In this document: in pieces, positions 15,523 through 24,746 of the stretch
Position numbering within the stretch: position 1 is the first letter of the stretch
Layout of the letters: the number at the start of each line of letters is the position of its first letter
From: Alphaproteobacteria bacterium
Lineage (GTDB): Bacteria > Pseudomonadota > Alphaproteobacteria > UBA8366 > GCA-2717185
NCBI GenBank assembly: GCA_028822585.1
Contig: JAPKDL010000019.1
Coordinates: forward strand, 1 to 38,857
Length of the DNA stretch: 38,857 bases
Direction: 5' to 3'
Made by a program: the position numbers and the translations under genes
Notes under the pieces: generated by a model
The model's database searches: none
What the model saw: only the letters and a program-made list of their open reading frames with translations
What the model was told of the DNA's origin: nothing

Positions 15523-16287
15523 ATGGGCCGATTACAGAATAAGGTCGCGGTGGTGACCGGCGGCGCGATGGGGCTAGGACAGGCGGTTGCGGAGCGGTTT
15601 GCAGCGGAAGGCGCTAAATTGGCGCTGGGCGATATCAACGCGGACGCGCTGGAGGCGACGGCGGCAAAGATTGCCGCGTCCGGTGCGGAGGTAACCACAT
15701 TGGTTGGCGATGTCACGGAGGAGGCGAACGCCATCCAGTTGATTGAAGACGCGGTCGCGCATTACGGGCATATCGATATTTTGGTTAATGTCGTGGGCGG
15801 CAGCCGTAACACGAAAATCTGGGAAATGTCGGTGGAAGATTGGGACCATGTCATGCGACTAAATTTGCGCGGCACCTTCCTGTGCACCCGTCAGGCATCC
15901 CAACACATGATGAAACGTCGCCAGGGTAAGATCATCTGCTTTTCATCTGGCGCCCGTGAAGGCACGCCATGGTCCGCGTATTACAGCGGCGCGTCCGCTT
16001 ATTCGACCGTGAAGGCTGGGGTGCACGGGTTTATACGCGACGTTTCGATGGAATTGGCGGAATATAACATCAACGTAAACGCGGTGGCGCCGGGGCCCAT
16101 TAATACCGAACGCGTGGGCGCAGGCCTGCAACGACTGAATGAGACCGTCGAACGCAGTCCCAACATGATGACCCCTATGGGGCGTCTTGGCGAACCGTCG
16201 GAAGTGGCGGACGCCGTCCTGTTTTTAGCGACCGACGAAGCGTCTTACATTTCCGGGCACACTATTGCGGTGGCGGGTGGGCGCTAG
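15523..16287 (+). CDS. Short-chain dehydrogenase/reductase (SDR)
   Basis: A 254-residue classical SDR starting at the ATG at 15523, which has a G-rich site (GGGGGGAC) just upstream. The Rossmann glycine motif is TGGAMGLG (12-19). Asp37 at the end of beta-2 (LALGDIN) suggests NAD(H) preference. VNVVGG (89-93) replaces the usual NNAG, a modest deviation. The catalytic set is Ser141/142, Tyr160 and Lys164 in YSTVK, and the PGPINTE loop and C-terminal YISGHTIAVAGGR are typical. Its stop TAG overlaps the GTG start of the PLP enzyme, and it begins 19 bases after the Ldh gene. The substrate is probably an alcohol or ketone of the same pathway. Confidence 0.9.
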   Translation: MGRLQNKVAVVTGGAMGLGQAVAERFAAEGAKLALGDINADALEATAAKIAASGAEVTTLVGDVTEEANAIQLIEDAVAHYGHIDILVNVVGGSRNTKIWEMSVEDWDHVMRLNLRGTFLCTRQASQHMMKRRQGKIICFSSGAREGTPWSAYYSGASAYSTVKAGVHGFIRDVSMELAEYNINVNAVAPGPINTERVGAGLQRLNETVERSPNMMTPMGRLGEPSEVADAVLFLATDEASYISGHTIAVAGGR

Positions 16288-17534
16288 TGACGCGCCCCGC
16301 CTTGCCGCAACACGGCGTTTCCTGGGGTCGGTTGAAGCCCCGGATGGAATCTTTTGCGGAAGGTGATTTTGACTGGCGTGCAGGCCGGCTGGCGCTTTAC
16401 GTTTTTGACGCAGGGGATGAAGTCCGCGCAGTGGCGAAAGACGCGTACGCCATGTTCATGACCGAAAACGGTCTGGGTCCGGCGGCGTTTCCCAGTTTGC
16501 GTCGCATGGAGGATGACGTTGTCGGGTTCGGCCTGTCCCTACTCGGCGCGCCCGAAGGCGCGTGTGGCGACATGACGTCGGGCGGCACCGAAAGCATCCT
16601 GATGGCGGTGAAGACCTGTCGCGACTACTGGCGAGCGAAAGACGAGGCGAAGCGCACCGAAATCGTCGTGCCGCAATCCGTCCATCCCGCGTTCAACAAG
16701 GCGGCGGAATATCTGGGTCTGACGGTGAAGCGCGTGCCCGTGGCGGGTGACTTTACTGCTGATGTTAACGCGATGGCGGCGGCAGTGGATGAGCACACGA
16801 TGATGGTGGTCGCCTCGGCACCGTGTTTTCCCTATGGCGTCATCGATGATATCGAAGGTTTATCCCAGCTCGCAATCGACCGGGATATCTGGCTGCATGT
16901 GGACGCCTGCGTCGGCGGTTATTTCGCCCCGTTTGCGCGCATGAACGGCGTCAATTTATCTCCCTTCGACTTCGCGCTGCCCGGTGTGCGGTCGATGTCC
17001 GCCGACCTGCATAAATACGGCTATGCGGCCAAAGGCGCATCCACGGTGTTTTACCGGTCCGCTGCGTTGCGCAAGTATCAAATTTTCCGCTTTGGCGATT
17101 GGCCCACCGGCGATATGGTCACGCCCACCTTGGCGGGCACAAGACCCGGCGGTGCCATCGCAGCGGCCTGGGCGGTGATGAATTATCTGGGTTGCGATGG
17201 GTATCGGGACAAGGCGCGGATAGTTGTCGAGACCCGCGAAAAATATCAACGTGGGTTGGAGGCGATTGGTGGGTTCCAATTTTTCGGACAACATCAGCTG
17301 GGCCTGTTGGCGTTCGGGTCGGATGAATTCGACATGCACGCCGTGTCGGAAGGCATGCGCGACCGCGGTTGGATGTCCGCCGGTGTTCGTGAGCCTAAGG
17401 GCATGCATCTGATGCTATCGCCGGGCCACGCGGATGTAGTGGAAGACTATCTCGCGGCGATGGCTGAGACCGTGATCGAAGTCCGTGCCGGTGAACGCGT
17501 GGCGGTGGCGGGCGGCGGGGCGCGATATAGCTAG
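16287..17534 (+). CDS. PLP-dependent group II decarboxylase / sphingosine-1-phosphate lyase-like enzyme
   Basis: A 415-residue fold-type I PLP enzyme. MTSGGTESILMAVKTCRDY (96-114) binds the cofactor phosphate. HVDACVGGYF contains D206, which contacts the pyridine nitrogen. SMSADLHKYGYAAKGAS carries Schiff-base K243. This arrangement and length match the sphingosine-phosphate-lyase/tyrosine-decarboxylase-like group; automatic pipelines may call it an aspartate aminotransferase family protein. The GTG start overlaps the SDR stop by one base, so translation is coupled. A retro-aldol or decarboxylation step feeding an aldehyde to the SDR is a reasonable inference. A membrane anchor, present in eukaryotic S1P lyase, is absent. 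Confidence 0.88.
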   Translation: MTRPALPQHGVSWGRLKPRMESFAEGDFDWRAGRLALYVFDAGDEVRAVAKDAYAMFMTENGLGPAAFPSLRRMEDDVVGFGLSLLGAPEGACGDMTSGGTESILMAVKTCRDYWRAKDEAKRTEIVVPQSVHPAFNKAAEYLGLTVKRVPVAGDFTADVNAMAAAVDEHTMMVVASAPCFPYGVIDDIEGLSQLAIDRDIWLHVDACVGGYFAPFARMNGVNLSPFDFALPGVRSMSADLHKYGYAAKGASTVFYRSAALRKYQIFRFGDWPTGDMVTPTLAGTRPGGAIAAAWAVMNYLGCDGYRDKARIVVETREKYQRGLEAIGGFQFFGQHQLGLLAFGSDEFDMHAVSEGMRDRGWMSAGVREPKGMHLMLSPGHADVVEDYLAAMAETVIEVRAGERVAVAGGGARYS

Positions 17535-17583
17535 GCAGGCGTTTCTTGATTAAGTACCAGCGCTTTCTGCAATGTTCTTTTGT

Positions 17584-17907
17584 TTAACCCCGCGAGACAA
17601 TTAGGTGGAGTTCACCTAGGTACGATTTCAAACCGTCGTTGGATAGACCCGGTTCGTTATAGTGTTGGACCCACTTCATGCCGCGTGATCCTAGATTGGG
17701 TGCCGGGCGCAGTCCGGGTTGTTCCCGCGGGGTTTCATAAGCGAGTTCGGAGACCTTGAAGGTCACGCGCGCATATTTTATGTCGCCCCACCGGCTAATA
17801 ACAAAGGCTTTGCCGCCCACTTTCCAGACCTGGGAGCCGCGCCATTGAACGACATGGGTTGTCGCGGGCAGGGAGTAGCAGAAGTCTTTGTAGTTTCGGA
17901 GTACCAT
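17584..17907 (-). CDS. MmcQ/YjbR family small protein
   Basis: A 107-residue protein with the YjbR pattern: a short N-terminal helix ending CYSLPATTHVVQW, then VWKVGGKAFVI, a central strand region (ARVTFKVSELAYE) and the late block LGSRGMKWVQHY. YjbR-like proteins have a double-wing fold and are annotated as DNA-binding by analogy; their biochemical role is poorly defined. It converges on the PLP operon and has no obvious partner. Its ATG at 17907 has no strong ribosome binding site that I can see. Family assignment rests on pattern recall, not a search. Confidence 0.75.
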   Translation of the reverse strand: MVLRNYKDFCYSLPATTHVVQWRGSQVWKVGGKAFVISRWGDIKYARVTFKVSELAYETPREQPGLRPAPNLGSRGMKWVQHYNEPGLSNDGLKSYLGELHLIVSRG

Positions 17908-17997
17908 TATTCAGAACCAGGATTTTTCGATGCGAGATTCAAATTACTTAATTGCCAATAAAAAATATAATTTGGTAATTATGTAGAGGTGGGGTTT

Positions 17998-18247
17998 ATG
18001 GCAAAGAATACATCAGTGGCCCTCGGGAAGCATTTCGAGAGCTTTATTAGCATTCCGGTTGGGAAAGGCCGTTTCGCGCCGCTAGCGTGGTTGTTCGCGC
18101 CGGATTGCTGTTACTTGAAGAACACGAAGTTAAACTTGATGCGCTTTGCGCGGCGTTAATAGCGGGGAGGAAAGTGGCCCTGCAAAGCCCTTTGATAACG
18201 ATGATTTTTTGAAGGAAACGGGGAAGAAGCATGCCGAGAAGCCCTAA
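17998..18247 (+). pseudogene. parD: Frameshifted ParD-type antitoxin remnant
   Basis: An ATG at 17998, preceded by GAGGTGGGG, begins MAKNTSVALGKHFESFIS, the signature N-terminus of ParD antitoxins. After GKGRF (about 18072) the frame slips by one. It resumes as ASVVVRAGLLLLEEHEVKLD and ALCAALIAG, the ribbon-helix-helix to linker region. A second one-base slip near 18170 restores ESGPAKPFDNDDFLKE, the toxin-binding tail, ending at TAA 18245-18247. Two independent one-base losses in a gene of about 80 codons make it non-functional as read. The ParE remnant follows directly. Confidence 0.85.
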
Positions 18248-18254
18248 AGTTGAC

Positions 18255-18614
18255 ATGCTTTTCCCGCTTGCTCGAGCTGACCTCGAAGAGATTTGGCTTT
18301 ACACCTTCAACACTTGGTCGTTCGGTCAAGCTGAAAGCTAATTCGGAAAAGATCGTTAAGAGATTTGACGCCATAGCAGAAGTAACCCAAACGGGACGAA
18401 GGGCGGATTATATCCGTTCAGTCTATTTCCGGGTTTTTGTTGGGTCGTGTATATTTTTTATCGGAAACTATGTTCTGAAATTGCAATAATCCGAATCGTT
18501 CATCGCCGAATGAATGTTACCTTTCATGATGATGACGTCGAATATTGCATTCTCGCTACCTCTTCGCCGCCAATCCCTCTGTTTTTTATGTCCTATACCG
18601 GGCGGAAATTTTAG
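18255..18614 (+). pseudogene. parE: Frameshifted ParE-type toxin remnant
   Basis: Starting eight bases after the ParD remnant, one frame gives ARADLEEIWLYTFNTWSFGQ, the ParE N-terminal helices. An extra base near 18341 shifts to ANSEKIVKRFDAIAEVTQTG and RADYIRSVYFRVFVGS. A missing base in a run of six T (about 18451) shifts again to FYRKLCSEIAIIRIVHRRMN, the conserved ParE C-terminal strands. The end is uncertain because the frame runs on to a TAG at 18612-18614, while normal ParE proteins stop soon after HRRM. Intact ParE poisons DNA gyrase. Loss of antitoxin function is tolerable only if the toxin is dead, which fits both being broken. Confidence 0.82.
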
Positions 18615-18880
18615 GTGGCGTAGAATTCGGTGGAGAAGCCACCCTAGGCTGATTTTTCGATCGCGAGGTTGACTTCGCGTAGGCGGTGGGTAGATACGCG
18701 GAGCGTCACCACTTGACCGACCCCCATCATGACGTTTAGGGACGCTACCTCGATGCCTTCGGGCGAGCACATTTCCCTAAATTTGGTTTAGGCGTGTTTA
18801 GCGTTGATTTCAGCCAGGCTCTTGGTTTAATTCTGCTTCAGAAATGCCGTCAATAAAATTTTATCGATTTGGTCGGACAT
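18611..18880 (-). pseudogene. Decayed small ORF with three in-frame stops, family unknown
   Basis: From the ATG at 18880 the minus strand reads MSDQIDKILLTAFLKQN, then a stop, then SLAEINAKHA, a stop, and FREMCSPEGIEVASLNVMMG continuing through VTLRVSTHRLREVNLAIEK. A third stop and GGFSTEFYAT follow before the final TAA. The frame is kept for 90 codons despite three nonsense codons (TAA, TAA, TAG), and the translated text has normal protein composition. I do not recognise the family. The 3' end overlaps the end of the ParE remnant by four bases. Confidence 0.5.
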
Positions 18881-19041
18881 AGCTTGCGTTCCCCTGTGTT
18901 TGCTTGCGAAAATGAGAACCTGTCGAATAAAATGAATAATGCGGTGGCGCGAGGGAATCCGACTCGCTTTTGCGACACTGGCGCTACCTAACTCTAATTA
19001 GGCCCGAGGGGCCTTCCTTTCACCTGAACACGGAGCAGCCC

Positions 19042-22000
19042 TTGTATTTCGACCGCCGTCTTTGGCAATTCACCACAGGTGTCCGCTGGCGGATTTTCTG
19101 GTCGGTGTTCATTGGTTTGTTGTCGGCGGCGGTTGGCGTCGCCCGCTTGGCCCTGCTGGGCTGGGTGTTGGCGAAAATATTCCGAGGCGACACGCTGGAA
19201 TCGCTGATCGAGCCGTTCATCCTCGTCGCGGCGATCATGGTGTTGCGCGGCGTTCTGGAATACGGACGCAATATGGTCGCGCACAAGACGGCGGCCAAGG
19301 TGCAGCTGCATCTGCGGGAAAAACTATACGCCAAGGTCGTCGAGTTGGGCCCGGCGCATTTTGGGCTGCAACGCACCGGTGACGTGATCCTGTCGCTGGT
19401 CGATGGAGTGGAGCAGCTTGAAACCTATTTCGGGCAATATCTGCCCCAGCTTTTTGTGTCCATTCTGACGCCGATTGGTATCTTTTGTTTCGTTGCCTTC
19501 CTGGATGTGCCGGTCGCCGCCATGTTGACGGTATTTGCTTTGGTCACCTTTGCCGCGCCGCAGCTCTGGCACCGGTGGGATAGCGACAACAGCATGGCGC
19601 GGTCGAAGGCGTATAAAGCGTTCGCGGCGGAGTTTCTGGATTCGATTCAAGGCTTGGGCACGTTAAAATCCTTTGGCCAAAGCGCGGCGCGCACCAAGGT
19701 GTTGGAGGAAAAAGCGCACACGCTGTTCCACAGCACCTTGTGGGTATTGGCGACGAATTCACTGTCACGCGGCATTACCGATGCGGGCATCGCTATTGGC
19801 GTTGCGTCGACCTTGGCGTTGGGGGCGTACCGGGTTGTCGATGGCACCATGAGCGTGCAGGCGTTGCTGATCATCCTCATGATGGGTATCGAAGTGTACC
19901 GGCCCCTGCGCGACATGCGCTCGCTCATGCATCAAGGCATGGTGGGGCACGCGGCGTCAATTGGCATTATGAGTTTGTTCGACTCCAAACCGCCCATTAT
20001 CGGCGATACATCCGGCGTTTCGGTAGGGGAGATTACGCCGACGGTGGAATTCGATCACGTACGCTTCGCTTATCCGGGTGGGCGCGGCGCGGCGCATGAG
20101 GATTTGTCGTTCAAGGTGGGCATAGGCGAACGGATCGGCGTTGTTGGTCCCAGCGGCGCTGGGAAATCCTCCATCGTCAAGCTGCTGTTGCGCACCTATG
20201 ACCCCAACGCCGGGACAATCCGCCTAGGCGGGCATGATCTGCGGGATTTGAGCTTCGCTGATATTCGCAGCCAACTCGCCATTGTCGGGCAGGACACCTA
20301 TCTGTTCCACGGCACGGTTGAGGACAATATCCGCTTTGGGCGCCCGGACGCTAGTCCTGAAGACTTAGACGCGGCGGCGCGCGCGGCGAACGCGACCGTC
20401 TTCATCGAAGAATTGCCACAAGGCTACGCCACAGTCATCGGCGAACGCGGATTGAAGCTATCGGGCGGGCAGCGGCAACGCATCGCCATCGCCCGTGCCT
20501 TGTTGCGCGATGCGCCGATCCTGGTGCTGGATGAGGCGCTGTCGTCGGTGGATGCGGAAAACGAAGCGGTGATTCAGGACGCACTCGACCGGTTGATGAA
20601 GGGCCGCACCACGTTGATCTTCGCCCACCGCCTGTCTAGCGTGATCGGTGCGGATCGGATATTGGCCTTGAACGATGGGCGTATTGCAGAAAGCGGGACT
20701 CATAGCGAACTTATGGCCGCGCGCGGTGTTTATTTCCGGTTGATGGAAGGCCAGGCGGAACAAGCGGAATCGGTTGAACCGTTTCTGCGCGACGAGGATA
20801 TGGGGGCGCAGGAAGCCGAAGTTCCAGGCACCGAAATACGTCGGGTCGAGGCGCCTGCGGAGCCAACCAACTCTATCCTTCGCGCCGAAGGGCTGGGGTG
20901 GGGCGGGGCGATCAAGTCGCTGTTTGGGCATATTGTTCCGTACAAGGCGGAGTTGGTTTTAACCTTTGTTCTGGGCGTCACACGGGTGGCGGCGTTGATC
21001 GGCGTTGGCGCGATAAGCGCGTTGATCGTCGCGTCGGTGAAGCGGGGCGAGTCGTTCGATACGTTGTTGATTGTGTTGGCGGTCATGGCGCCGTTGGCGG
21101 GAATACTGCATTGGTTTGAATCCTGGACGGCGCATCACATGGCATTCCGATTGCTGGCGGAAATGCGCGTTGCGCTGTTCAAGAAACTCGACCGGTTGGC
21201 GCCGGCCTATCTGGTGCGGCGACGTACAGGCGATCTGGTGTCCATGGCGACCCAGGATGTGGAAACGGTTGAATTCTTCTTCGCCCACACGGTGGCGCCC
21301 GCCTTCGTCGCATTATTGGTGCCCGCGGCGGTGTTGGTGACATTGGCGTCGTTCGGGTGGCAAATGGCGTTGGCGTTGGCGCCGTTTCTGGCCATTGTCA
21401 GCCTCAGTCCGTTTTTTATGCGCGGTCGAATCGACAGGCTGGGATCGCGCGCGAGAGAGGCGCTAGGTGACTTGAATGCGCATAGCGTCGACACGATCCA
21501 GGGCCTTGGCGAAATAACAGCGTTTCAACAGGAAGGCGAACGGGGACGGCAATTTATCGACCGGGTCAAAGCCCACCACGCCTTACGCCTCCCGTTTTTC
21601 AGCGATTTGACGCTGCAGACGTCGATCCTTGAAGCTGCGACGGGACTGGGCGGGCTGGTGGTTGTCGTCACTGGGCTTGGGCTTGTCGCGGACGGCGCGA
21701 TTGACCGGACGATCCTGCCCTTGATGAGCGTATTGGCGATGTCCGCGTTTCTACCGGTGTCCGAAATCGCTAATATTGGCCGCCAGTTGGCGGATACGTT
21801 GGGGTCGACGCGGCGTCTACATGCGGTGGATCAAGAAGACGTGCCGGTCACCGATGGTGCCGGGGTAGATGTTTTGAACAAGGAAACAGGCGGCGTGTCT
21901 TTAAGCCTTGATCATGTGATTTTCGCCTATGCGGGAACAGATAAGCCCGCGCTGGCGGATGTGTCGTTTGAAGCGCCGGCGGGCAGCACCGTGGCGCTTG

Positions 22001-22641
22001 TAGGCCCATCGGGCGCGGGCAAGACGACGACGGCGCATCTGCTGATGCGATTCTGGGACCCGGACACGGGTGTGGTGCGTATGAATGGTTGTGATTTACG
22101 GGACTATGAACTTGACGATTTACGCAACCGCATCGCGCTTGTGGCGCAAGACACCTATTTGTTCAACGACACGTTAGGCGCCAACATCATGATCGCCAAA
22201 CCGGACGCCAGCGAGGCCGAACTTGACGCCGCGTTGGACCGGGCGTCGCTACGAGACTTTGTCGCGACGTTGCCGGAGGGATTGGATACGCCGGTGGGCG
22301 AGCGTGGCATGCGGTTGTCAGGCGGCCAGCGGCAGCGCGTGGCGATTTCCCGCGCTTTCCTGAAAGACGCGCCGGTGCTGATCCTGGACGAAGCGACATC
22401 CCATTTGGACGCGGTCAATGAACAGGCGGTCCGCACGGCGTTGAACGAGTTGATGAGCAACCGGACCACTATCGTCATCGCGCATCGGCTGTCGACGATC
22501 CGCAATGCTGATTTGATTGTCGTCATGGAAAATGGCCGGGTCGCTGAAACCGGCACGCATGACACGTTGCTCGCGAGTCGCGGGCTTTACGCGCATCTGG
22601 TGTCGCGACAGCTTTCGGGACGGCAAGCCGCGGCGGAATAA
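19042..22641 (+). CDS. Fused ABC exporter with two transmembrane and two ATPase domains
   Basis: A single chain of 1199 residues from the TTG at 19042, which has GGAG seven bases upstream; the frame is open to 18970, but that part is not family-like. Order is TMD1, NBD1, linker, TMD2, NBD2. NBD1 has GPSGAGKS (K375), Q-loop VGQDTYLFHGT, signature LSGGQRQR, Walker B ILVLDEA and H-loop AHRLSS. NBD2 has GPSGAGKT (K994), VAQDTYLFNDT, LSGGQRQR, VLILDEAT and AHRLST. Both ATP sites look catalytically complete, unlike many heterodimeric exporters with one degenerate site. CydDC-like or lipid/peptide exporters are possible homologues, but the cargo is unknown. No cyd or biosynthetic genes are adjacent. 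Upstream lies the parDE fossil, so the promoter is probably in 18881-19041. Confidence 0.9.
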   Translation: MYFDRRLWQFTTGVRWRIFWSVFIGLLSAAVGVARLALLGWVLAKIFRGDTLESLIEPFILVAAIMVLRGVLEYGRNMVAHKTAAKVQLHLREKLYAKVVELGPAHFGLQRTGDVILSLVDGVEQLETYFGQYLPQLFVSILTPIGIFCFVAFLDVPVAAMLTVFALVTFAAPQLWHRWDSDNSMARSKAYKAFAAEFLDSIQGLGTLKSFGQSAARTKVLEEKAHTLFHSTLWVLATNSLSRGITDAGIAIGVASTLALGAYRVVDGTMSVQALLIILMMGIEVYRPLRDMRSLMHQGMVGHAASIGIMSLFDSKPPIIGDTSGVSVGEITPTVEFDHVRFAYPGGRGAAHEDLSFKVGIGERIGVVGPSGAGKSSIVKLLLRTYDPNAGTIRLGGHDLRDLSFADIRSQLAIVGQDTYLFHGTVEDNIRFGRPDASPEDLDAAARAANATVFIEELPQGYATVIGERGLKLSGGQRQRIAIARALLRDAPILVLDEALSSVDAENEAVIQDALDRLMKGRTTLIFAHRLSSVIGADRILALNDGRIAESGTHSELMAARGVYFRLMEGQAEQAESVEPFLRDEDMGAQEAEVPGTEIRRVEAPAEPTNSILRAEGLGWGGAIKSLFGHIVPYKAELVLTFVLGVTRVAALIGVGAISALIVASVKRGESFDTLLIVLAVMAPLAGILHWFESWTAHHMAFRLLAEMRVALFKKLDRLAPAYLVRRRTGDLVSMATQDVETVEFFFAHTVAPAFVALLVPAAVLVTLASFGWQMALALAPFLAIVSLSPFFMRGRIDRLGSRAREALGDLNAHSVDTIQGLGEITAFQQEGERGRQFIDRVKAHHALRLPFFSDLTLQTSILEAATGLGGLVVVVTGLGLVADGAIDRTILPLMSVLAMSAFLPVSEIANIGRQLADTLGSTRRLHAVDQEDVPVTDGAGVDVLNKETGGVSLSLDHVIFAYAGTDKPALADVSFEAPAGSTVALVGPSGAGKTTTAHLLMRFWDPDTGVVRMNGCDLRDYELDDLRNRIALVAQDTYLFNDTLGANIMIAKPDASEAELDAALDRASLRDFVATLPEGLDTPVGERGMRLSGGQRQRVAISRAFLKDAPVLILDEATSHLDAVNEQAVRTALNELMSNRTTIVIAHRLSTIRNADLIVVMENGRVAETGTHDTLLASRGLYAHLVSRQLSGRQAAAE

Positions 22642-22647
22642 GTGTGG

Positions 22648-23430
22648 TTACGTGGTAACCTCGGCGAGAAAAATCGATAGAAGCCGGACGCAGTCATCGG
22701 CGTGGGTGGTAATCAGGAAATGGCTGGCGCCGTCAACCACAGCGGGGCGCACATTTGGCAAACTCCTGGTCAACGCATCGGTGATTGCAACCATCGAGGG
22801 GATCGCCAATCCGCCGCGTACCACCAATGCCGGGATGTTGAGCTGAGCCAAGTCTTCGTGATTGATATAAGTGGTTTTAACCGACCGCCAGTCCAGAACG
22901 TTTGAGCCCGCCGTCGTACGGCAATAGCCTTGCGCTGCGTCCTGCATGGCGTCGAAAGATCCTTCACCGCCCCAATAATCAATAATTTGCCTTGCGGCGT
23001 TGCGTTCTCCGGCTTCAAAGTTATCGCTGACCGCCAGCATTTCCTCATATGTCGCGCCCCGGTCGCGCAGGAAAAACCGGGCTGGCCTCGAAGGTTGCGA
23101 TGCTTTTGGTATCCGCAACGTTGGCCAACGCGATCGTCAGCGTAACGGCGCCGCCCAAAGAATGCGCGACCAGATGAAGGGGTGCGTCGATGCGGCGCGC
23201 CACGGCGTCCAGAATTCGAATTTGATACTCTATGAGCGGGTCGTGGAGGGTGCGGGTTTCCTGTGTGCCGCCATATCCGAGAAGACTGGTCCCTACAAAG
23301 CGATAGGTCTGCGGCAGGAGCTTCTGTACGCTGCGCCATGCCGCGGGCGTACAGAAGGAACCCGGTAAAAAACCGCCGAACCGTCACCGGTTTCCTGATA
23401 GTTGATCTCCCCACCCTCCAGTTTCAACAT
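22648..23430 (-). pseudogene. Alpha/beta hydrolase with two frameshifts
   Basis: From the ATG at 23430 the minus strand encodes MLKLEGGEINYQETGDGSAV. A missing T in a run of six (plus-strand A at 23367-23372) then breaks the frame. One frame over comes FLPGSFCTPAAWRS, LLGYGGTQETRTLHDPL and the nucleophile elbow LVAHSLGGAVTL. An extra base near 23075-23080 breaks it again after TFEASPVF. The last frame gives LRDRGATYEEMLAV through VDGASHFLITTHADDC, with the catalytic His in SHFL. Repaired, it would be about 260 residues, a normal hydrolase with Ser and His present. Both slips are next to homopolymers, so sequencing error is a real alternative. It follows the SnoaL-like gene by ten bases in the same direction. 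Confidence 0.8.
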
Positions 23431-23440
23431 GGCGGCGACC

Positions 23441-23899
23441 TTAAACCATTTCCGGGCGGTCGCCGTAAGAGAGTTGGGGGACGTTTTGGTTTAGGGAGAA
23501 ATGCGAATGGATGGCGAGCCAGGGGTCGGATGGCATTGCGCGGCGGAATACGATTGTGGCGCGACCGGGCCGGTCATAGGGGGTCTGGTCTTGGTGGAAC
23601 CCGGTTGATCCCCACGGCACGACGCCGTAGGCGAAGCAACGGTCGGACGACACATCCAATTTTAATTGATCCATCTTGAAGGCGAATTTTTCAATTTTCG
23701 ACCAGACGGAACGCCATTGCTGGGCGATTATATTATCACGGGATACGATCACGTCTTCATAGGTGCCGAATCCGACAGCGTCTTTGTCAAACAAGGGTGT
23801 CGCGGCGGTGAAGTTTACATCCGAGACGTGTTTGTGCATGGTTTCGAACCATGCATGAATCGCCGCTGTGTCGATATCAAATTCGCTGGATGTCGTCAT
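23441..23899 (-). CDS. SnoaL-like / NTF2-fold protein
   Basis: A 152-residue protein with the NTF2-like pattern used by SnoaL polyketide cyclases, SgcJ-type and DUF4440 proteins. It has an N-terminal helix pair (IHAWFETMHKHVSDVNFTAATPLFDKDAVGFGT), then VIVSRDNIIAQQWRSVW and a beta-rich half ending WLAIHSHFSLN. The fold binds or isomerises small hydrophobic compounds, or acts as a ketosteroid-isomerase-like enzyme; no specific catalytic residues can be assigned. It is upstream of the broken alpha/beta hydrolase and divergent from the broken SDR. It may be the surviving member of a small lost catabolic cluster. Confidence 0.75.
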   Translation of the reverse strand: MTTSSEFDIDTAAIHAWFETMHKHVSDVNFTAATPLFDKDAVGFGTYEDVIVSRDNIIAQQWRSVWSKIEKFAFKMDQLKLDVSSDRCFAYGVVPWGSTGFHQDQTPYDRPGRATIVFRRAMPSDPWLAIHSHFSLNQNVPQLSYGDRPEMV

Positions 23900-23989: not shown

Positions 23990-24746
23990 GTGAATACAAG
24001 CGGGTCATCATCGTCACGGGAGCGGCTAGTGGTATTGGCGCTACCGTTGCGCACGGGCTGGCTGGACCGGGAATTGCCTTTGTTTTGCACACGCGGCGTA
24101 ATGAAGCGGGGTTGACTGCGGTGGGCACAGATGCGCGCGCTGCTGGCGCGGATGTAGTGATTGATTTACGTGACCTGGCGGAAGAAAGCGCGGGGGAGAG
24201 TCTGGTCGAAGCGACTGTCGCGTCGTTTGGCCGAGTCTATCAAATTATCAGCAATGTGGGTTTCGCCGATAAGCGCCGTGTCGGAGACTTCGACTTACAG
24301 GATTATCGGGCGTCTAACGGGACAATTTCAGAGGCATTTTTAGGGCTAACCAGTCCCGCCTTGCCTTATTGGGCGGCAAGCGAACGGGGGCGGGTAGTCG
24401 CAGTCAGCTCTTTTGTCGCGCATATTTTTGGCGCGAACGATGTTATTTTTTCATGACCGCCGCCGTTAAGGGCGAAGTTGAGGCCCTTGCGAAAGCGTTG
24501 GCGTATCAACTGGTGCCGTCCGTCGTTTGTTTCAATTGTGTTGCGCCGGGATATACGCAGAAAGAGGCTGGTACGTATCAAGGTGTTTCCAACGGAGGCT
24601 TGCACCAAGCCGCGGGTTTGGCGCCGATGAAAACCTTGGTGACGCCCGACGATGTCGCGGCGGCGGTGCCGTTCCTGTTAAGCCGGGACACTGCCCGCAT
24701 CATAGGACAGGTAATCCATGTTGATGCGGGGTTGGGCTTACTGTAA
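23990..24746 (+). pseudogene. Short-chain dehydrogenase with two frameshifts
   Basis: A GTG at 23990 starts MNT, then one missing base shifts to KRVIIVTGAASGIGATVAHG, the Rossmann entry with its glycine motif. The frame holds through ADVVIDLRDLAEE, ISNVGFADKRRVGDFDLQDY and VVAVSSFVAHIFGANDV. A missing T in a run of six (24446-24451) shifts to MTAAVKGEVEALAKALAYQL and IIGQVIHVDAGLGLL, the SDR C-terminus. The Tyr of the usual YxxxK appears as Thr in TAAVK, a variant seen in some diverged SDRs. Repaired length is about 252 residues. It diverges from the SnoaL-like gene. True decay or sequencing error are both possible. Confidence 0.78.

What the first reader, a model, noticed from the sequence alone, without database searches (positions are those of the whole stretch)
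17998..18614. Fossil parDE toxin-antitoxin locus with frameshifts in both genes
ParD (MAKNTSVALGKHFESFIS, then ASVVVRAGLLLLEEHE, then the toxin-binding tail) and ParE (ARADLEEIWLYTFNTWSFGQ through IIRIVHRRMN) can both be rebuilt only by crossing at least two one-base slips each. The order and eight-base gap of a normal parDE pair are kept. It marks a site where an addiction module was inactivated, toxin and antitoxin together.
Basis: partly seen in the sequence, partly recalled or inferred. Interest (0 to 1): 0.6.

Follow-up and report, generated by a model that had tools for sequence, protein, structure and literature searches.

The report
Decayed parDE toxin-antitoxin gene pair
A marine bacterium's chromosome holds the broken remains of a toxin gene and its antidote gene, wedged between two neighbouring genes that are also decaying; this is a clear but ordinary example of a self-preserving gene pair that has died.

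Summary
Frameshift-aware alignment finds ParD (17998-18247) and ParE (18231-~18530), each broken by two one-base slips: -1 near 18076 and 18162, +1 near 18340, -1 near 18448. Scores are 223 and 187, against at most 43 and 39 in 60 control segments. Intact relatives occur in the same bacterial family (63% ParD, 47% ParE identity).

Corrections and additions:
(1) The genes most likely overlapped by 17 bases, as in intact G010 and G007. The "eight-base gap" appears only if ParE starts at an internal ATG at 18255 that the aligned relatives lack.
(2) ParE has also lost its stop codon.
(3) The palindrome TACCA-N5-TGGTA, found upstream of parD in all six close relatives, is gone.
(4) The neighbours are dying too. 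Gene X (18581-18880, minus) has five nonsense codons where relatives are open, and YjbR has lost its C-terminus. Nonsense substitutions next door make sequencing error unlikely.
(5) In a congener, X and yjbR sit about 20 bases apart with no parDE between.
(6) No other ParD or ParE is detectable in this ~96% complete genome.

Whether toxin and antitoxin died at the same time cannot be told. Decayed toxin-antitoxin loci, including a parE pseudogene in Caulobacter, are already documented. Interest is low.

The parts
17953..17977 (+). Possible remnant of the parD operator: TGCCA-N15-TGGTA where intact relatives have TACCA-N5-TGGTA
   Evidence: Exact TACCAN5TGGTA lies 17-31 nt upstream of the parD ATG in six of six close relatives; no match with up to 2 mismatches near parD in the window. 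That this remnant is homologous to the operator is inference.
17998..18247 (+). parD pseudogene (ParD/CC2985-type antitoxin); one-base losses near 18076 and 18162; the unbroken reading frame from the ATG now ends after 53 aa at 18159
18231..18530 (+). parE pseudogene (RelE/ParE-superfamily toxin); one-base gain near 18340 and loss near 18448, native stop lost; the frame from the ATG now ends after 36 aa at 18341
   Evidence: end coordinate approximate (similarity ends at 18527)
18231..18247 (+). 17-nt overlap of parD end and parE start, as in intact G010 and G007
   Evidence: Sequence
18581..18880 (-). Gene X pseudogene (orthologue of an intact 108-aa conserved protein without a Pfam family); stops at codons 18, 31, 79, 90 and 96
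   Evidence: W79 and Y90 are invariant in 80 of 80 intact homologues
17541..17907 (-). yjbR (PF04237) with a nonsense codon that removes its last ~14 residues; the lost tail is still partly readable downstream in another frame; coordinates of the remnant tail approximate
17908..18580 (.). Segment with parDE that stands between X and yjbR here, where congener G001 has about 20 nt between the two coding regions; boundaries approximate

Best explanation
The locus is a chromosomal type II parDE module that is no longer functional. A ParD/ParE pair related to those of intact alphaproteobacterial systems sat between gene X and yjbR, on the opposite strand to both. It was most likely acquired in this lineage, since the congener G001 has X and yjbR side by side with nothing between. 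It then lost its function: both reading frames are broken twice, the ParE stop is gone and the autoregulatory palindrome is gone. The neighbouring X gene and the end of yjbR are decaying too, so the module is part of a small relic block of about 1.4 kb between two intact genes. Shown: homology, frameshifts, nonsense codons in X, absence of the palindrome, absence of another ParD/ParE in the genome, the empty site in G001. Inferred: acquisition rather than loss in G001, that no functional toxin is made, and that the toxin was silenced before or with the antitoxin (needed for survival).
For: Blind Pfam hits to both ParD pieces; ParD and ParE above Pfam cut-offs when read through; frameshift alignment far above null; intact overlapping parDE in G010, G007, G042 and G086; operator palindrome in 6 of 6 relatives and absent here; X has 3 TAA and 2 TAG where G001, G002 and G025 are open, and more first- and second-position changes than the intact pair (30 of 64 against 17 of 64, Fisher p 0.027); X and yjbR adjacent without parDE in G001; no other PF03693 or PF05016 match in the own genome.
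Against: parDE has four indels and no nonsense codons while X has five nonsense codons and no indels (Fisher p 0.008), a contrast a single uniform decay process does not predict. Bridged ParD still shows a codon-position pattern like that of intact pairs, so the decay must be recent or the indels partly artefactual. The G001 contig ends about 70 bases into yjbR, so the empty site rests on one MAG contig end.
Confidence: 0.9

Rival explanations
1. The four slips in parDE are sequencing or assembly errors in this draft, many-contig assembly and the module is intact in the living organism.
For: parDE shows only indels and no nonsense codons, which is what indel errors would give; one slip lies in a G4 run and another beside a T6 run; ParD's codon-position pattern is that of a constrained gene; no independent sequence of the species was available.
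Against: The adjacent gene X carries five nonsense substitutions, which indel errors do not make. The flanking genes 16287-17534 and 18970-22641 are open throughout, so four slips in about 530 bases would need a highly local error. The operator palindrome and the ParE stop are lost as well.
Confidence: 0.07
2. The module is still partly alive: slippage or programmed frameshifting restores some ParD or ParE, or a truncated ParD fragment has a regulatory role.
For: One slip is at a G4 run where slippage is possible in principle; no stops after bridging.
Against: Two slips would have to be bridged in each gene, most not at slippery sites; the operator and the ParE stop are gone; neighbours decay as well.
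Confidence: 0.02
3. parDE is ancestral at this site and was cleanly deleted in G001, rather than inserted in the window's lineage (a rival only to the acquisition step, not to the decay).
For: Only one congener has a readable X-yjbR junction; G002 has the two genes on different contigs.
Against: Intact parDE relatives in the family are not beside X or yjbR, and none of 80 X loci from other genomes has parDE beside it; only G001's own record has yjbR there, which fits sporadic acquisition.
Confidence: 0.15

Closest known systems
Intact chromosomal parDE of G010 and G007 (same bacterial family)
   Same: Gene order, 17-nt overlap, ParD 63% and ParE about 45-47% identical
   Different: Open frames, intact upstream palindrome, unrelated neighbours
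Caulobacter crescentus parDE with a parE pseudogene (cited in PMC7354431)
   Same: Chromosomal alphaproteobacterial parDE with a dead toxin
   Different: There ParD remains as an orphan antitoxin; here both genes are broken
Decaying ccdO157 system in E. coli (cited in PMC2654758)
   Same: A chromosomal toxin-antitoxin module undergoing degeneration
   Different: Different toxin family, followed within the species E. coli; here a single genome
parDE at G029:C2:313657-314185
   Same: Related module, one gene damaged
   Different: ParD intact, ParE with one TAG at the conserved IWLYT tryptophan, palindrome intact

Membership tests
ParD antitoxin (PF03693 / TIGR02606) | Profile match above curated cut-off | tested here: met
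   Two unmodified pieces over the Pfam cut-off; read through, 93.8 bits to PF03693 (cut-off 21) and 73.5 bits to TIGR02606 (cut-off 46.2)
ParD antitoxin (PF03693 / TIGR02606) | Single open frame of about 80 aa | tested here: not met
   Two one-base losses; the frame from the ATG ends at 53 aa. It is a pseudogene of this family, not a working member.
ParE toxin (PF05016) | Profile match above curated cut-off | tested here: met
   Only when read through the slips: 47.8 bits, cut-off 23; the unmodified DNA gives no match at E <= 1
ParE toxin (PF05016) | Single open frame of about 100 aa with its own stop | tested here: not met
   Slips near 18340 and 18448, native stop lost. It is a pseudogene of this family, not a working member.
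parDE operon | parD upstream of parE on one strand, genes overlapping or adjacent | tested here: met
   17-nt overlap as in G010 and G007
parDE operon | Upstream palindrome shared by close relatives (TACCA-N5-TGGTA) | tested here: not met
   Present in 6 of 6 relatives, absent here at up to 2 mismatches
parDE operon | Toxicity of ParE and its neutralisation by ParD | not testable with these tools
   Needs expression in a laboratory strain

The most novel reading that the evidence does not exclude
The insertion of parDE between X and yjbR split an operon and started the decay of both neighbours, so that a module acquired by selfish spread damaged its landing site and then died there, leaving a whole inert block.
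Probability: 0.15. Interest if true: 0.35.

Novelty: new member of a known kind. Interest (0 to 1): 0.15.

Why it matters
It is a well-resolved case of an addiction module that decayed on a chromosome, with an empty site in a congener and intact relatives for comparison. It fits the view that chromosomal toxin-antitoxin modules can drift to death when not under selection (PMC2654758), and it shows that annotation by open frames alone would miss it. It does not change what is known about parDE.

Tried and rejected
A search of viral contigs with the neighbouring ABC protein found nothing. A codon-bias gene finder gave unusable densities, probably because training sets were too small, and was replaced by an ORF-length measure. 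Direct or inverted repeats marking the ends of an inserted element were sought at 17850-18650; none was convincing. Promoter and terminator scans were near chance level. Plasmid parD genes (296 records) are no closer than the family relatives (best about 60%), so no donor was identified. A wider search of the order gave no closer relative than G010 and G007. In-frame stops first flagged in two X homologues (L136, L139) proved to be their normal termini.

Full report
Observation. The three forward frames of 17950-18650 show ParD in pieces (frame 1: MAKNTSVALGKHFESFIS...; frame 3: ASVVVRAGLLLLEEHEVKLDALCAALIAG; frame 2: GEESGPAKPFDNDDFLKETGKKHAEKP-stop) and ParE in pieces (frame 3: MPRSPKVDMLFPLARADLEEIWLYTFNTWSFGQAES-stop; frame 1: EKIVKRFDAIAEVTQTGRRADYIRSVYFRVFVGS; frame 3: YIFYRKLCSEIAIIRIVHRRMN). 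A blind six-frame search of the whole genome with PF03693 returns exactly two ParD pieces, both here, and nothing else. PF05016 gives no match in the unmodified genome, but the read-through ParE scores 47.8 bits against a cut-off of 23, and the read-through ParD 93.8 bits against 21.

Slips. A local alignment that allows frameshifts, against ParD and ParE of four genomes with open frames, puts two one-base losses in parD (about 18076 and 18162), one gain (about 18340) and one loss (about 18448) in parE; with G010, 51 of 80 and 46 of 100 positions are identical. Scores of 223 and 187 compare with at most 43 and 39 in 60 random 701-base segments of the same window. After bridging no stop codon remains. 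The frame from the parD ATG now stops after 53 residues and that of parE after 36.

Architecture. In G010 and G007 parE begins 17 bases before the end of parD, in G042 and G086 11 bases. The window keeps the same overlap (18231-18247). The ParE stop codon is lost and its frame runs to 18614, into the 3' end of the opposite-strand neighbour. All six close relatives have TACCA-N5-TGGTA 17-31 bases before parD, and among the 211 loci held at the time this pattern occurs only in parDE loci. The window has no such site near parD even with two mismatches; TGCCA-N15-TGGTA at 17953-17977 may be what is left of it (inference).

Surroundings. The gene on the right, X (18581-18880, minus), is an orthologue of an intact 108-residue protein in G001, with relatives in G002, G025, G029 and G042, 80 kept homologues across several phyla and no Pfam match. 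In the window it has stop codons at positions 18, 31, 79, 90 and 96; W79 and Y90 are invariant in all 80 homologues. Compared with G001 it has more first- and second-position changes than G002 has (30 of 64 against 17 of 64, p 0.027). On the left, yjbR keeps its core but ends early by a nonsense codon, with the homologous tail partly readable beyond. The flanking genes at 16287-17534 and 18970-22641 are open.

Empty site. In G001 (MAG SI074_bin63, Rhodospirillaceae) X is followed after about 20 bases by yjbR, where the contig ends. In the window about 670 bases with parDE stand between them. The intact parDE relatives in the family have other neighbours, and X in other genomes has no parDE beside it. 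Acquisition in this lineage is the simpler reading, though loss in G001 is not excluded.

Artefact or real. Indel errors could make four slips but not five nonsense substitutions in the adjoining gene, and the neighbouring 3.7-kb ABC frame has none. Only one slip lies in a homopolymer of four or more, and one is beside T6. The contrast of four indels and no stops in parDE against no indels and five stops in X is curious (p 0.008); numbers are small and I have no explanation beyond chance. Read data would settle it.

Known kind. A parE pseudogene with an orphan ParD in Caulobacter crescentus and a frameshifted YacB toxin in Shigella flexneri are reviewed in PMC7354431; the decay of ccdO157 in E. 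coli and inactivated hok-sok copies are discussed in PMC2654758. The present locus is another instance, in which both genes and the palindrome are gone. Whether toxin or antitoxin was lost first is unknown; since loss of the antitoxin alone should be harmful, toxin first or both silenced is expected (inference). G029 shows a toxin-only stage: intact parD and palindrome with one TAG in parE.

Noticed in passing
window 24004-24746 (+): A short-chain dehydrogenase (PF00106/PF13561) split by a frameshift near 24450: the two halves match adjoining parts of the profile in different frames.
   Followed up: partly
window 22648-23326 (-): An alpha/beta hydrolase (PF12697) that appears to continue in another frame after a stop near 23045, so probably a second frameshifted pseudogene.
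   Followed up: partly
window 23540-23899 (-): A SnoaL-like protein (PF13474) whose frame seems to break off near 23540.
   Followed up: no
G029:C2:313657-314185 (L057): parDE with intact ParD and palindrome but TGG to TAG at the conserved IWLYT tryptophan of ParE: a toxin-only inactivation.
   Followed up: partly
own genome, 159 kb sampled: Coverage by ORFs of 150 aa or more is 0.815, against 0.85-0.91 in relatives sampled the same way, a mild hint of a raised pseudogene load.
   Followed up: partly
window 18581-18880 (-) and loci L124-L203: Gene X belongs to a widely conserved small protein (motif SWYVMMGIGQV...WGxFxTEFYxTYD) found in Proteobacteria, Myxococcota, Acidobacteria and others, with no Pfam family.
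   Followed up: partly
window 17998-18530 versus 18581-18880: Opposite mutation types in neighbouring pseudogenes: four indels and no nonsense codons in parDE, five nonsense codons and no indels in X.
   Followed up: partly
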